64,000 bases of DNA from Prochlorococcus sp. MIT 1341 (GTDB lineage Bacteria; Cyanobacteriota; Cyanobacteriia; PCC-6307; Cyanobiaceae). The stretch is taken from assembly GCF_034092415.1 (NCBI RefSeq), contig NZ_CP139304.1, forward strand, positions 434,001-498,000, read 5' to 3'. The position numbers and the translations under genes were made by a program. Under the pieces are notes generated by a model. It was not told the DNA's origin, did not search any database, and saw nothing but the letters and a program-made list of their open reading frames with translations. How positions within the stretch are numbered: position 1 is the stretch's first letter; each line of letters begins with the position of its first letter. Positions 2,569 through 11,970 of this stretch are shown here, piece by piece.

Positions 2569-3567
2569 TTAGTCGAATCGCTCATCGCAACTTCTACCCA
2601 CCCATTTAATACGTCGATCAATATCTAGGTGAGCAACGACATCAGCATTGATTTTCATTAAATTCTGATGTGGTATCGATCGCTGTATCATTCTGATAAA
2701 TTTTTCAAGTGAGTCTCCTTGTAATGAGGCACCTTTAGTTCTTAGAAGATGATCTTCCTGCTGTCTTTTCCATTTAGCTGTGTAATCTATATCTAGTGCT
2801 TTAAGATGCCATATAAGAGAAAGTCTTTTCCAAATCGATTGGTATTTTTTGAGAGAGTTTTGAACAGTACCTCTATAATCTGTCTCTCTTTGGATAAATT
2901 CATTACATTCAGAAGCGTTATCATCTATATCAAAATCTAGGGTATTGGTGTTTTCAGAACCTAAAAACCAACCTTCTAGAAGAAGGATTTTGGGTCTGGA
3001 CAAAGACCAACCACTTCTATCTCCAAGGCCATCCCTTAGTGATTTATCAAATCTGGGGCAGGATAAGATTCCTTTATTTAAGAACTTATAAAGAGTTTCT
3101 TCAAGTACGTCTAAGTCATGACTTCCGGGTAATCCCCTAGGAACTCCCCAAGGATTACCTTCCATTGCAAGGTCCAAGCGTGGTGAGGGTAAATAAAAGT
3201 CGTCAAGAGAAACTACCCTTAAAGGAAGTTTAAAAGCTTTTGCTGCTCTCTCTAACCATTTACCAAAACTGCTCTTTCCGCAGCCTGGTAGTCCAGATAA
3301 GCCAAGGAGTAGAGGCTGATCATTAAAGCTAATTAGAGATTCTACTTCTGAAAGAAGAGGTAGACCTACTCCCCAGAACCAGTCCGCTCTAGTTCCTTCT
3401 GGCCAATAATTATATATAAAATAATCAGCTCCTCTCTGAAGCCAAAATTCAGCCCATTTATTAATCTCTAGCGGACTAAAGGTACTAATAAGCTGTTGAA
3501 GATCAGCTAAAGGGAAGTTGATCTCATTCTCATATGGTTGAAATGGATTTGAAATTGAACCAATCAT
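2569..3567 (-). CDS. glyK: D-glycerate 3-kinase
   Basis: A 332-residue P-loop kinase with the Walker A motif GLPGCGKS at residues about 92-99, then an SLDDFYLPSPRLDL stretch and a LLLEGWFLG element, all typical of the plant/cyanobacterial glycerate kinase family (phosphoribulokinase/uridine kinase-like fold). The family phosphorylates D-glycerate to 3-phosphoglycerate and usually serves photorespiration. Here the gene is last in a minus-strand run with a glucosyl-3-phosphoglycerate phosphatase (14-bp gap) and a GH13_18 phosphorylase. Context therefore suggests a second role: recovering glycerate released from glucosylglycerate. Family call is strong; the solute link is inference. Confidence 0.88.
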   Translation of the reverse strand: MIGSISNPFQPYENEINFPLADLQQLISTFSPLEINKWAEFWLQRGADYFIYNYWPEGTRADWFWGVGLPLLSEVESLISFNDQPLLLGLSGLPGCGKSSFGKWLERAAKAFKLPLRVVSLDDFYLPSPRLDLAMEGNPWGVPRGLPGSHDLDVLEETLYKFLNKGILSCPRFDKSLRDGLGDRSGWSLSRPKILLLEGWFLGSENTNTLDFDIDDNASECNEFIQRETDYRGTVQNSLKKYQSIWKRLSLIWHLKALDIDYTAKWKRQQEDHLLRTKGASLQGDSLEKFIRMIQRSIPHQNLMKINADVVAHLDIDRRIKWVGRSCDERFD

Positions 3568-3581
3568 CAGTTCTGTCCATT

Positions 3582-4379
3582 TTAAGAAGAAGTTTCAGAA
3601 AAAAACTTTCTCACCGATAAAGCCCATCCCGTAGCGTGAGGTTCAAGGGCTGAAGAAAAACGACCACTAGATATCTCATTTATATAATAGGGATCAATAC
3701 CATTTAAACCAGGAACAACTATCGATACATCTGCTGCGTCTAAAAGGTCTTTATCATTAGGAGAATCACCTAATGCAAAAACTTTTACTTCAGGCTGTTT
3801 TAAATACTCTTTAAGTGAATTTAATGCTTTACCTTTATTAGTTTTATTACTTATTAAATGACTCATTCTATTGCCTTTTAGAATTGCTACATTGAATTTA
3901 GGCGTTAATTTTTCTAATTTTAATGAAAACTCTCTAGGAGGAGTTAGAAAAGGGACACTCCACAAACGCTCTTGTGCAAGAGTAATAGACTTTCCCGTCA
4001 ATCCGGTTATCTCCTCCACTTCAACTGCAGATAAATCCTTAAAGGACAATAGGTTATAACCTATTAATCTAGAAAGATCATCTAAAATTGGTCTAAGTTC
4101 CTCATACCGTAATCCGAGTGGTAAATTCCAAGTACTATTAGTATCAGGTTCTTGACCATATACTGCTCCACCATTTTCAACTATATATGGATCCTTTAAT
4201 CCATATATAGACCTAAATTGCTCAACTTCGGCTGCTGTCTTACTTGTACAGGGAATTACTGGAACTCCAGATTCTTGAAGCCATCTCAAAGTTTCGAGTG
4301 CTGGTGATAAATCATATTGATGGTCCATTAAAGTTCCATCCAGATCGGTTACGACCCACCAGTTTTTAATGATTGTCAT
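3582..4379 (-). CDS. gpgP: Glucosyl/mannosyl-3-phosphoglycerate phosphatase (HAD)
   Basis: A 265-residue HAD hydrolase. The nucleophile motif DLDGT is at residues 12-16, a Thr-Ser-Lys motif II (PCTSKT) near 43-48, and the metal-binding GDSPND loop at 204-209. The cap contains VENGGAVYG, characteristic of mannosyl-3-phosphoglycerate phosphatases. It should remove phosphate from glucosyl-3-phosphoglycerate to give glucosylglycerate. Its start overlaps the stop of the upstream phosphorylase by four bases, indicating translational coupling. The synthase lies divergently next door, so a glucosyl substrate is more likely than mannosyl. Confidence 0.88.
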   Translation of the reverse strand: MTIIKNWWVVTDLDGTLMDHQYDLSPALETLRWLQESGVPVIPCTSKTAAEVEQFRSIYGLKDPYIVENGGAVYGQEPDTNSTWNLPLGLRYEELRPILDDLSRLIGYNLLSFKDLSAVEVEEITGLTGKSITLAQERLWSVPFLTPPREFSLKLEKLTPKFNVAILKGNRMSHLISNKTNKGKALNSLKEYLKQPEVKVFALGDSPNDKDLLDAADVSIVVPGLNGIDPYYINEISSGRFSSALEPHATGWALSVRKFFSETSS

Positions 4380-6178
4380 GAGTTAATACTACCTTTTAAC
4401 CAGGCAACCGAATAGGGATCTATATTAATTAAAGCCTCAAAGTATTCATTGCCACTAAGTATATCTTTCCAAAAGGATGAGGCTCTGAGATTATGAGACA
4501 AGCAGAGACTTGTTATGTTAATAGTCACTTCGTGTTCTGTAAAGTTATGCACAGCAATGACTTTCTCGTGGTCTTTACCTCTACTTACTATAACTAAATC
4601 ATTTCTATTTAAGCTTAGACATTGCATAGAAGAGTCAGGGTGAAAAGCTGGGGTCTTTGACCTTATCAACATGGCGGTCTTGAGATTTTCTAAAATCAAT
4701 GATTGTATGGAGCTTTCAGTCTGCAAAGATTCTATTAACTTATTTACAGGAAATTTTCTACGGTTAAGGTCTCGTCTTTGTCCTGTTCTTCGGAATGTAG
4801 AGATATCATTTTCTGATGCTAATAATGCTTGGAAATAAAATGCTGGAACTCCTTTTAATGACATAACTAAAAGCTGACTTAATAAAAATCGAAGCAGTTG
4901 CGTATTGGAATCATTACCCTCAGTATCCGACATCGCACTCCACCAACTTATATTTATCTCATACGGCTCATCTTGTCCATTAACTGTTGATCTATGGCTT
5001 ATCATACCTCCACGTTTCTCACAAGCTATCAACAATTCCTTTAATCTACTATCATCCATAATTCCATAAAGAGGCCTCAATCCAACACCATCATGACAAG
5101 CTGTGAAATTTAGAAGGGTTGTATTTGCAGGAAGTTTTGGCCATTCATTAATCATATTATTTATCAAATCAGTTCGCCTACTCATAAGAGCTTCAAGTAT
5201 TAAAGGTGGCAACGGAAAATTATATGCAATATTTGCTTCCAACCCAGAATCCAGATAAGATAAGTTTTCATCTTGTGGTACATTCGTCTCAGTAACTAAA
5301 ACAGATCTAGGGAGAAGTATTTCTATAAAAACCCTGAAAATCTGGACTAATTGATGGGCTTGATCTAAATGTATGCATTTAGTACCTGATTCTTTCCAAA
5401 TAAACCCTACAGCATCAAGTCTGATCCATTTAACTCCAAAGTTTGCATAACGAACAATAAGCTTTAGAAATTCAATTAAAAGAAATGGATCTTGCCAATT
5501 TAGGTCTATCTGATCTGGGCTAAACGTTGTCCAAACAGGAAAAGGGCCCTTAATTGTTGAAATAGTTGAAAACAATGAAGAGTTCCTTGGCCTAACAACA
5601 TTTGACCAATCACCTAATAAGGAAGGTGAAAGAATATAAGATTTTCCAGGACCTTCATCTTTTCTGAATTGATCCACCCAAGGATGTGAAGATGAAACAT
5701 GGTTTAGAACAAGGTCGGCCATGAGCATCCGTTCCTCTCCAAGGAATCCCAAGTCACTCCAGTTACCAAACCTGGCATTTAATTCTTCATGACTTGATGG
5801 AGCAAATCCTCCATCACTAGTTGCCTTTAAGAAAGGTAAGACATGTGTGACTGATGCCAAATTTTCAATTTTTGAATTAATTATATTTGCTAATAATCTC
5901 AATGATGGAGCATCAGAATCAACGAAAGGGTCTGGGTACGTTATTAAAACTGCAGTGGAAGAGTCCCAAATTTGATCTGTTGAATTTGCCTTATCATCAA
6001 CAATTAATGAATTCGATTCAAGAATTTGCATCATTTGTGACCAAATTAATTCCATATCTACGTCAGATTGGTTTTTATAGATCTCTTCGATCAATCCCTT
6101 CAACCGGACTAATTGATTTGACACTTCAATTTCCACACATCCTCTACTATTCTGTCCAAACAATTGACATATACACAT
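4376..6178 (-). CDS. GH13_18 sugar phosphorylase, probably glucosylglycerate phosphorylase
   Basis: A 600-residue alpha-amylase-superfamily enzyme of the sucrose phosphorylase type. Visible motifs are DLVLNH (155-160), IRLDAVGF with nucleophile D255, VTETN with acid/base E298, and ACHDG with transition-state D363. Subfamily GH13_18 contains sucrose, glucosylglycerol and glucosylglycerate phosphorylases, and annotation pipelines usually default to sucrose. Here it is coupled to a glucosyl-3-phosphoglycerate phosphatase and a glycerate kinase, so reversible phosphorolysis of glucosylglycerate to glucose-1-phosphate and glycerate is the better inference. The ATG start lies only 23 bp from the divergent synthase start. 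A GTG at codon 15 is an alternative start. Confidence 0.85.
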   Translation of the reverse strand: MCICQLFGQNSRGCVEIEVSNQLVRLKGLIEEIYKNQSDVDMELIWSQMMQILESNSLIVDDKANSTDQIWDSSTAVLITYPDPFVDSDAPSLRLLANIINSKIENLASVTHVLPFLKATSDGGFAPSSHEELNARFGNWSDLGFLGEERMLMADLVLNHVSSSHPWVDQFRKDEGPGKSYILSPSLLGDWSNVVRPRNSSLFSTISTIKGPFPVWTTFSPDQIDLNWQDPFLLIEFLKLIVRYANFGVKWIRLDAVGFIWKESGTKCIHLDQAHQLVQIFRVFIEILLPRSVLVTETNVPQDENLSYLDSGLEANIAYNFPLPPLILEALMSRRTDLINNMINEWPKLPANTTLLNFTACHDGVGLRPLYGIMDDSRLKELLIACEKRGGMISHRSTVNGQDEPYEINISWWSAMSDTEGNDSNTQLLRFLLSQLLVMSLKGVPAFYFQALLASENDISTFRRTGQRRDLNRRKFPVNKLIESLQTESSIQSLILENLKTAMLIRSKTPAFHPDSSMQCLSLNRNDLVIVSRGKDHEKVIAVHNFTEHEVTINITSLCLSHNLRASSFWKDILSGNEYFEALINIDPYSVAWLKGSINS

Positions 6179-6201
6179 AATTCTGTTGCACTCAACACCA
6201 A

Positions 6202-7389
6202 ATGGACTTTCAACAGGGCCTGATCACAACAATCCATCACTACGGTATTTACCAAGATTCCCTTAAAGAATTACGGAGCAGTTTGAAGAAGCGGCCTACC
6301 TCCCTCCTAATTCCTTGTATTTTCAGTGAATTCAAGAGGCCTGCCCTGACTCTGATAAAAGATGTACTTTTAGAACTTGAAGGTCTAGACAGGTTAGTAA
6401 TAGCTCTGTCGGCAAATTCAGAAAGCGAGGTAAAGCAAGCAGATAATTTCTTTAGTGAGTTGCCATACCCTGTACATATTCAATGGACAGATTCTCCTGC
6501 AGTCATAGAACTCCTAAAAGCTCATGAAAAAAATGGTTTATCAGTATATGGAAAACCAGGTAAAGGGTGGGCCGTTTGGCAGGGCATTGGTATAGCCAGT
6601 GTTACGTCTGATGTAATTGCATTGTTTGATGCTGATATTCGCACCTTTAGTCCTTCCTATCCCGCAAGGATGTTAAGTCCATTACTTAACGGTTCTGATG
6701 GAGTCTCATATGTAAAAGCTTTTTATAGCCGTATATCTCTTGATACAAATGCTCTACAAGGAAGAGCTACAAGATTATTTGTCGGGCCATTATTAAATGC
6801 ACTAGAGAAAATATTTGGAACTCTTCCGTACCTTCAATACCTCCAAGCCTTTAGATACCCCCTAGCCGGTGAATTTGCCTTCTCAAAAAGTTTAGCCATG
6901 AATCTAAGGATCCCCTGTGATTGGGGACTCGAAATGGGCCTTTTATCTGAGGTTTATAGACATGTGTCAACAACTCGAATTGCTCAAGTCGATTTAGGAA
7001 TATTTGATCACAAACATAAAGATATTGGTGATAAACCAAATCAGGGCTTGCAAAAAATGTGCTCTGAAATATTCGCAAGTATCCTAAGAGGACTCATGGA
7101 GCATGAAGGGAAAACACTAATTGGGCCCCAATTATCAACTCTTGAAGTGCTATATAAACGTCTTGGTGAAGATAGAGTTAAGCAGTTCGGAGTTGACTCC
7201 TTAATAAATCATCTTCCATATAACAGGCATGAGGAGGAGCTTGCTGTTCAGAAGTTTGCTTCACTTTTAAAGCCAGCAATGAACGATTTCATGAGTTCTC
7301 CATCGTCAGAACAACTACCCTCCTGGTCGAAAGTATTAGATCGTGAAAATAGGCTTCAAGAGGATCTTGCTATAGCAGGAAAAATATAG
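6202..7389 (+). CDS. gpgS: Glucosyl-3-phosphoglycerate synthase
   Basis: A 395-residue GT-A fold glycosyltransferase (GT81 type). The substrate loop GKGWAVWQGI is near residues 120-129 and the metal-binding DAD triad at 143-145 in ALFDADIRTF. Downstream come a GEFAFSK element, a DWGLEMGLL catalytic-region motif and a His-rich FDHKHK stretch, all known from GpgS/MpgS proteins. It transfers glucose from an NDP-sugar to 3-phosphoglycerate, the first step of glucosylglycerate synthesis. The length fits the family. It is divergent from the phosphatase-phosphorylase-kinase run with a 23-bp gap, so its promoter must lie within the neighbouring coding sequence. Confidence 0.92.
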   Translation: MDFQQGLITTIHHYGIYQDSLKELRSSLKKRPTSLLIPCIFSEFKRPALTLIKDVLLELEGLDRLVIALSANSESEVKQADNFFSELPYPVHIQWTDSPAVIELLKAHEKNGLSVYGKPGKGWAVWQGIGIASVTSDVIALFDADIRTFSPSYPARMLSPLLNGSDGVSYVKAFYSRISLDTNALQGRATRLFVGPLLNALEKIFGTLPYLQYLQAFRYPLAGEFAFSKSLAMNLRIPCDWGLEMGLLSEVYRHVSTTRIAQVDLGIFDHKHKDIGDKPNQGLQKMCSEIFASILRGLMEHEGKTLIGPQLSTLEVLYKRLGEDRVKQFGVDSLINHLPYNRHEEELAVQKFASLLKPAMNDFMSSPSSEQLPSWSKVLDRENRLQEDLAIAGKI

Positions 7390-10719: not shown

Positions 10720-11970
10720 TCAATTAGCACTTCTCAATGGTCTTACTAAACGAAGGATAGGGATCAAAAGTATGCATAATGCTGCCATTAAAAGCCATAA
10801 ATCATAGGCATGTGAGTTAGTGTCAAGGAACCAACCAGTAATCAAAGGAGCAATCAATGCTGTAAAGGCAAAGCATTGCGAGAATAGTGCCAATGCTAGG
10901 CCTCTTTTATTAAAAGGTGTTATGTCAATAACTGCCTGGGTTGCGGTAGGTAGAAATGCTGCCAATCCAATAGAAAAAAATATTTGAGCCCCAAAGATTA
11001 TTAATACACCATTTTTTATGGTCGCCGAATAGGCAAGAAGGTAGCAGCCCGAACCTAAATTGAGAAGGCTAAGTAGTAATCCAAATCTTATTGTTCTATC
11101 TGCAAGCCATCTGCCTACTGGCCACTGCAAAAAAACTAATAGGCAAAGTTGCATTGTAATAATTGATCCACTTGTAGCTTCAGAGAGAGGAGGCCTTTCA
11201 AGACCACCTCGAACCATATCAAGAGGTAAAGCACTCTGGAGCATGGCAAAGATTCCAGTAGCGATAAGACTAACTATTAAAATGGGAATAAGCTCAATAA
11301 AAAAGGGATATTTTACCATATTATTTGTTAACTTTGAGACTGATATCGCAGAGTCATTATTTTGGTCATAAGGCTTTAATAATGAACTTTTCCTCAATAA
11401 ATTTAATAAGATAATCATGCAAAAAGTATCAAACAAGTAGACGAGACGGATATAACCTACTGCTGCAGTAATGGTTCCAAACAAAGCTCCTAGACTCATT
11501 CCTAAAGCATCTGAACTTCTTACTAGGGCATAGCCACGCCTAGAAGGAAACTCCCCACATCCAAATGGGACTGCTAACTCAGCAGCTGGCCAATAAATAC
11601 CTGCAGAAGCACCTATCAAGACTTGCCCAAATAAGTATGTATTAAAGCTATTGGCTCTAAAAAGCGATAAATCAGCAAATATTGTCAGAAAACAAGCCGT
11701 ACTTACTAACAAGGAGCATGAAACTCTACGATCAAGGAGAAAACCACTTAGCAACCTTGTAAATGTTCCAATTAACGCCGCAATGGCAATACCAATTCCT
11801 ACTTGGGTAGCATTAAAACCAATCTTATTAAAAGCCATTGGAGTTAAATAAATAACTCCACCAGCCCCTAAAGAGGCCAAAAAACGGATTCTGGTCACCA
11901 ACTGAAGAGTTACTGGAAACTGGCCCCACCATCTCCCTGGATTCAGCTTTGACACTAAGGAAATCAACAA
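10720..11970 (-). CDS. MFS family transporter
   Basis: A 416-residue protein with about twelve hydrophobic segments. Major facilitator signatures include a GFLLDRR loop between helices 2 and 3 (near residues 75-82), an RGYALVRSSDALGMSLG stretch in the first half and a GRWLADRT repeat in the second half. It probably exports or imports a small molecule; the substrate cannot be told. The start is uncertain: TTG at 11970 gives the listed length and a GTG at 11955 is an alternative. Both overlap the start of the divergent hydrolase gene. Confidence 0.82.
   Translation of the reverse strand: MLISLVSKLNPGRWWGQFPVTLQLVTRIRFLASLGAGGVIYLTPMAFNKIGFNATQVGIGIAIAALIGTFTRLLSGFLLDRRVSCSLLVSTACFLTIFADLSLFRANSFNTYLFGQVLIGASAGIYWPAAELAVPFGCGEFPSRRGYALVRSSDALGMSLGALFGTITAAVGYIRLVYLFDTFCMIILLNLLRKSSLLKPYDQNNDSAISVSKLTNNMVKYPFFIELIPILIVSLIATGIFAMLQSALPLDMVRGGLERPPLSEATSGSIITMQLCLLVFLQWPVGRWLADRTIRFGLLLSLLNLGSGCYLLAYSATIKNGVLIIFGAQIFFSIGLAAFLPTATQAVIDITPFNKRGLALALFSQCFAFTALIAPLITGWFLDTNSHAYDLWLLMAALCILLIPILRLVRPLRSAN

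What the first reader, a model, noticed from the sequence alone, without database searches (positions are those of the whole stretch)
2569..7389. A closed glucosylglycerate make-break-recycle module
Four adjacent genes can form a complete cycle. GpgS makes glucosyl-3-phosphoglycerate, the HAD enzyme dephosphorylates it to glucosylglycerate, the GH13_18 enzyme can release glucose-1-phosphate and glycerate, and glycerate kinase returns glycerate to 3-phosphoglycerate. The three minus-strand genes are coupled (4-bp overlap, 14-bp gap) and divergent from gpgS by 23 bp. GH13_18 enzymes are usually annotated as sucrose phosphorylases; this context argues for glucosylglycerate. The glycerate kinase would then serve solute turnover as well as photorespiration.
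Basis: partly seen in the sequence, partly recalled or inferred. Interest (0 to 1): 0.75.

Follow-up and report, generated by a model that had tools for sequence, protein, structure and literature searches.

The report
Glucosylglycerate make-and-recycle gene cluster
Four neighbouring genes in a Prochlorococcus-type ocean cyanobacterium can make the protective sugar-acid glucosylglycerate, break it down and return both halves to metabolism; this is real and very likely works as described, but the same operon and cycle have already been published for Prochlorococcus.

Summary
Four genes at 2569-7389 encode a class III glycerate kinase, a glucosyl-3-phosphoglycerate phosphatase, a GH13_18-type phosphorylase and a glucosyl-3-phosphoglycerate synthase (GpgS). 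The phosphorylase carries the published glucosylglycerate-phosphorylase fingerprint (TETN and a loop-A Glu), aligns to E. coli YcjM over 527 residues, and lies outside a fully supported clade of sucrose, sucrose-phosphate and glucosylglycerol phosphorylases. It tracks gpgS almost perfectly: 15 of 15 versus 0 of 25 genomes among relatives, and 21/1/1/93 across the class. The glycerate kinase is the only one found in the genome.

One detail needs correcting. The 23-bp divergent gap rests on an upstream ATG; homologues point to a GTG at 6124, giving about 77 bp.

The system is not new. A 2024 paper shows this operon and recycling route in Prochlorococcus NATL2A, and the enzyme specificity dates from 2017.

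What I add is evolutionary. The kinase is a housekeeping cyanobacterial gene that joined the cluster. Two other lineages lost the solute genes but kept the kinase, with gpgP remnants beside it, so it has a second job. A separate kinase lineage joined the same set in heterotrophs. No activity was measured.

The parts
2569..3567 (-). Glycerate kinase, class III (P-loop, plant GLYK type), 332 aa; returns glycerate to 3-phosphoglycerate
   Evidence: PDB hits 6ckg and 7xpc D-glycerate 3-kinase; P-loop GLSGLPGCGKSS; sole copy in genome, no class II or class I found
3582..4379 (-). gpgP, HAD-IIB glucosyl-3-phosphoglycerate phosphatase, 265 aa
   Evidence: TIGR01486 266.6 bits above cut-off 164.75; PDB 3ztw MPG phosphatase; HAD motifs DLDGT and GDSPND
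4376..6124 (-). Glucosylglycerate phosphorylase (GH13_18 type), probable 582-aa form from GTG 6124 (ORF from ATG 6178 is 600 aa)
   Evidence: TETN and loop-A Glu fingerprint, YcjM 32% over 527 aa, tree, model pLDDT 92
6125..6201 (.). Divergent intergenic region of about 77 bp with an element conserved just upstream of gpgS
6202..7389 (+). gpgS, glucosyl-3-phosphoglycerate synthase (GT81 type), 395 aa
   Evidence: NF040724 GpgS 372.8 bits, E 1.8e-111; PDB GpgS hits 7p5l and 4y6n

Best explanation
The locus is a glucosylglycerate cycle. GpgS joins glucose from a nucleotide sugar to 3-phosphoglycerate, and GpgP removes the phosphate to give glucosylglycerate, a nitrogen-free charged compatible solute. 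When the solute is no longer needed, the GH13_18 enzyme splits it with phosphate into glucose-1-phosphate and D-glycerate, and the class III glycerate kinase turns glycerate back into 3-phosphoglycerate. The disposal genes sit in a minus-strand operon with gpgP, divergent from gpgS, so synthesis and disposal can be set separately. The kinase also serves photorespiration. Shown here: gene content, order, fingerprint residues, phylogeny, co-occurrence, single kinase. Inferred: substrates, direction, regulation, physiology.
For: Gene families. Catalytic residues D255, E297 and D363, the TETN motif (N299) and loop-A E407 are invariant on the glucosylglycerate side; TETN and the Glu are absent in SP, SPP and GGoP. 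Equivalents of the sucrose phosphorylase phosphate-site residues P134, R135 and Y344 are kept as P197, R198 and Y406, with R198 and Y406 invariant and P197 nearly so. Tree. gpgS and phosphorylase co-occur 15/0/0/25 among relatives and 21/1/1/93 across the class, Fisher p 7e-21, not corrected for relatedness. Four-gene order in 35 Prochlorococcus loci. Kinase kept after solute genes are lost. A GlcD-type glycolate oxidase subunit homologue is present, a weak pointer to photorespiration. Published NATL2A expression agrees (PMC11631117).
Against: No enzyme from this lineage has been assayed. The only characterised glucosylglycerate phosphorylase available as a reference was YcjM, at 32% identity; the M. 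silvanus and S. thermophila sequences were not obtained. Overall architecture is nearer to GH13_4 amylosucrase than to sucrose phosphorylase. gpgS does not reach the NF040724 cut-off (373 of 700 bits). Operon transcription is inferred from spacing alone.
Confidence: 0.9

Rival explanations
1. The GH13 enzyme is a hydrolase (glucosyl- or glucosylmannosyl-glycerate glucosidase, gmgG, as named in some picocyanobacterial annotations), giving free glucose and glycerate.
For: Papers use the name gmgG for a glucosyl(mannosyl)glycerate-glucosidase in the gpgS/gpgP cluster. The nearest solved structures overall are amylosucrases and sucrose hydrolases.
Against: Counterparts of the SP phosphate-site residues R135 and Y344 are invariant and P134 nearly so. 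HDG rather than the HDD of amylosucrase, and TETN rather than AEAI. Characterised members of the TETN clade are reported as strict phosphorylases (PMC7178133).
Confidence: 0.06
2. The GH13 enzyme is a sucrose phosphorylase, and its place beside gpgS is incidental.
For: Best NCBIfam name is sucrose_gtfA. Prochlorococcus also accumulates sucrose (PMC11631117).
Against: Score far below the family cut-off (144 of 334 bits); SP motifs absent; outside the SP/SPP/GGoP clade at 100/100; presence follows gpgS across the class.
Confidence: 0.03
3. The glycerate kinase is a bystander: a photorespiratory gene that happens to sit downstream and takes no part in solute turnover.
For: It is unlinked in Synechococcus-type genomes G007 and G011, kept where the solute genes are gone, and belongs to the cyanobacterial kinase lineage.
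Against: Adjacent in all 35 Prochlorococcus loci with enough flank, 14 bp behind gpgP here. A different kinase lineage joined the same gene set in heterotrophs (L126, L140, L145, L157). It is the only glycerate kinase found in the genome, so glycerate released by the phosphorylase has no other known kinase.
Confidence: 0.15

Closest known systems
Glucosylglycerate metabolism operon of Prochlorococcus NATL2A (PMC11631117)
   Same: Same solute genes in one operon, and the same recycling of glucosylglycerate to glucose-1-phosphate and 3-phosphoglycerate
   Different: NATL2A has an adjacent transporter gene. LLI-like loci here carry a TauE/SafE permease beside gpgS (L175, L105); the window has none in its 64 kb. 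That this is the published transporter is inference.
Glucosylglycerate phosphorylase GGaP, EC 2.4.1.352 (M. silvanus, S. thermophila, E. coli YcjM; PMC7178133)
   Same: TETN and loop-A Glu fingerprint, catalytic triad, genomic neighbours gpgS, gpgP and glycerate kinase
   Different: Window protein only 32% identical to YcjM; activity not measured
gpgS-gmgG-gpgP cluster of marine Synechococcus (PMC7522525, PMC9361551, PMC2874817)
   Same: gpgS divergent from the GH13 gene and gpgP
   Different: No linked glycerate kinase in the two Synechococcus loci examined (L117, L121); GH13 gene named a glucosidase
Four-gene sets in Luteolibacter, Marinobacter, Halieaceae and Pseudomonadales
   Same: All four functions, including a class III kinase homologue, in one cluster
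   Different: All genes in one direction; kinase from a separate clade

Membership tests
Glucosylglycerate phosphorylase (GH13_18 GGaP) | (T/S)ETN motif at strand beta-5 | tested here: met
   T296-E297-T298-N299, invariant in all homologues tested, absent in SP/SPP/GGoP
Glucosylglycerate phosphorylase (GH13_18 GGaP) | Glu in loop A in place of Gln | tested here: met
   E407 in PYE; SP, SPP and GGoP have Q
Glucosylglycerate phosphorylase (GH13_18 GGaP) | Groups apart from SP, SPP and GGoP | tested here: met
   Those form a 100/100 clade that excludes the window and YcjM; long branches noted
Glucosylglycerate phosphorylase (GH13_18 GGaP) | Strict phosphorolysis of 2-O-alpha-glucosylglycerate, inactive on sucrose | not testable with these tools
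   Needs purified enzyme
Sucrose phosphorylase (TIGR03852) | Score above family cut-off and N(L/V)D(I/L/V)YQ loop-A motif | tested here: not met
   144.3 of 334.4 bits; loop A reads DEPYEIN
Amylosucrase / sucrose hydrolase (GH13_4) | HDD motif and AEAI around the acid/base Glu, as in the two GH13_4 sequences compared | tested here: not met
   HDG and TETN, although overall fold is close
Class III glycerate kinase (GLYK) | P-loop kinase related to D-glycerate 3-kinase | tested here: met
   6ckg E 2.8e-14, 7xpc E 1.2e-13
Class III glycerate kinase (GLYK) | Product is 3-phosphoglycerate | not testable with these tools
   Reported for the class in PMC10970406 and PMC2063504
Glucosyl-3-phosphoglycerate synthase (GpgS) | Above NF040724 equivalog cut-off | tested here: not met
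   372.8 of 700 bits, E 1.8e-111; still the best family, and PDB GpgS hits agree

The most novel reading that the evidence does not exclude
In Prochlorococcus the only glycerate kinase, a photorespiratory enzyme, was moved behind the glucosylglycerate disposal genes, so that carbon salvage from photorespiration and from the solute pool share one co-transcribed enzyme. The same closed four-gene cycle arose separately in heterotrophs with another kinase lineage, and some Prochlorococcus lineages discarded the solute genes while keeping the kinase.
Probability: 0.6. Interest if true: 0.4.

Novelty: new member of a known kind. Interest (0 to 1): 0.28.

Why it matters
Glucosylglycerate is a nitrogen-free solute in some of the most abundant phototrophs in the ocean, so its disposal route affects carbon budgets and what is shared with neighbours. 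The case for phosphorylase rather than sucrose phosphorylase or glucosidase corrects common annotations. The natural losses offer ready test cases for what the kinase does without the solute.

Tried and rejected
The Franceus 2017, Mukherjee 2018 and Franceus 2024 papers are not held, so residue criteria come from the 2020 review. The one genome-contig scan was filled mostly by Prochlorococcus, Rhodobacterales and other marine groups and did not return M. silvanus or S. thermophila. The second GH13 in the genome (L169) is TreS or alpha-glucosidase-like, not a second phosphorylase. No NtcA-type site lies in the window's own gpgS gap, and such sites are no commoner in the window than chance. Sigma-70 promoter-like sites are fewer than in shuffles, so no promoter is claimed. 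The MFS gene at 10720-11970 was considered as a linked transporter, but it is linked at this distance only within the window's own genus and perhaps G022. I labelled 7qqj AaSP in scripts; it is Jeotgalibaca ciconiae sucrose phosphorylase.

Full report
What is there. The window lies in a 1.94-Mb single-contig genome whose closest named relatives are Prochlorococcus. The 4-bp overlap and the 14-bp gap are confirmed. Family searches give a GT81-type GpgS, an MPGP-family HAD phosphatase and a GH13 enzyme related to GH13_18. The fourth protein has no Pfam match but hits solved D-glycerate 3-kinases of class III.

Start codon. The 23-bp divergent gap depends on ATG 6178. Most homologues match from about residue 15-26. 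The nearest sibling (G003) begins MSNQLQ where the window reads SNQLV behind a GTG at 6122-6124. The predicted structure of the 582-aa form starts with a confident helix. The gap is therefore probably about 77 bp. This is inference.

Specificity of the GH13 enzyme. The 2020 review (PMC7178133) gives the criteria: (T/S)ETN at strand beta-5 and a Glu in loop A mark glucosylglycerate phosphorylase, and mutating two residues, Asn275 and Glu383 of the M. silvanus enzyme, severely lowers activity. Equating these with N299 and E407 is my inference from the motifs. The window has T296-E297-T298-N299 and E407, shared by YcjM and every gpgS-side homologue aligned, while sucrose, sucrose-6-phosphate and glucosylglycerol phosphorylases lack both. 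The automatic alignment is shifted by a residue or two around the acid/base Glu in SP-type sequences, so that region was matched by motif. Equivalents of the phosphate-site residues P134, R135 and Y344 of B. adolescentis SP are kept as P197, R198 and Y406. In the maximum-likelihood tree SP, SPP and GGoP form a 100/100 clade that excludes the window and YcjM. Some long branches meet, so finer order is not used. The fold search ranks GH13_4 amylosucrases first by whole-length match (query TM 0.81-0.87, against about 0.70 for SP), partly because SPs are shorter and lack the end domains. The HDD/AEAI motifs of the GH13_4 sequences compared are absent.

Co-occurrence. Among 40 relatives, gpgS and the full-length phosphorylase are both present in 15 genomes and both absent in 25. 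In 116 genomes of the class, 21 have both, one (G043) has gpgS only, one (G050) has phosphorylase-like fragments only, and 93 have neither (Fisher p 7e-21, not corrected for shared ancestry).

Glycerate kinase. It has one match in the genome, with no class II or class I kinase found. It occurs in 33 of 40 relatives, many without the solute genes. In same-genus G002 the kinase stands 228 bp from the gene that follows gpgS in the window, with the last residues of gpgP (PHAKGWTLSVRK) left between them (L071). In G009 a C-terminal half of gpgP with an altered motif remains beside the kinase, and no gpgS or phosphorylase was found in that 83%-complete genome (L077). The solute genes were thus lost at least twice while the kinase stayed, so it must have another use; photorespiration is the natural candidate, and a GlcD homologue is present. 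PMC2063504 noted in 2007 that the role of class III kinases in bacteria was unclear.

How the module was assembled. Linked Prochlorococcus kinases nest among unlinked cyanobacterial kinases (G007, G011, G012, G005). The kinases of heterotroph four-gene clusters (Luteolibacter, Halieaceae, Pseudomonadales, Marinobacter) form a separate clade (100/100), and starred branches force at least four changes of linkage. Linkage to the cycle therefore most likely arose more than once.

What is known. PMC11631117 (2024) shows the NATL2A glucosylglycerate operon, recycling to glucose-1-phosphate and 3-phosphoglycerate, and an adjacent transporter, with expression data. GGaP was described in 2017 and its neighbours include glycerate kinase and gpgS. 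Other papers call the GH13 gene gmgG, a glucosidase. The finding is a further member of a known system.

Verdict. Observation confirmed, interpretation well supported by sequence, system already described in the same group of organisms; modest added interest from the kinase history.

Noticed in passing
L080, L086, L089, L090, L122 (gpgS-phosphorylase gap, about 52 bp from the gpgS start): A perfect NtcA-type palindrome GTAN8TAC sits at the same place in five SS120-like loci although its 8-base core differs (shuffle chance about 2% each). It is absent in the window and could link the module to nitrogen control.
   Followed up: partly
window 6179-6201 and homologues: A short element (roughly TCTGTTGC..T) just upstream of gpgS is conserved across genera, although the sequence there is non-coding in at least one.
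   Followed up: partly
L175:6111-6884, L105, L115, L119, L120, L074: A TauE/SafE permease gene lies next to gpgS in LLI-like loci and is a candidate for the published adjacent transporter; the window has no homologue in 64 kb.
   Followed up: partly
L085 (G018:C8): A decaying second copy: kinase with an in-frame TAG beside broken gpgS fragments, while an intact module lies on another contig of the same bin; may be a foreign contig.
   Followed up: partly
PMC9606707 Table 4: gpgP is given as NATL1_05721 and PMM0515, far from gpgS (NATL1_09131, PMM0962), while every Prochlorococcus locus here with enough flank has gpgP beside the phosphorylase. The published gpgP assignment may be another HAD gene.
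   Followed up: no
G043 (L177): A cyanobacterium with gpgS and gpgP side by side but no phosphorylase found; its disposal route is unknown.
   Followed up: no
window 10720-11970: An MFS transporter gene 3.3 kb beyond gpgS is linked to this locus in all four genomes of the window's genus but, with few exceptions, not elsewhere.
   Followed up: partly
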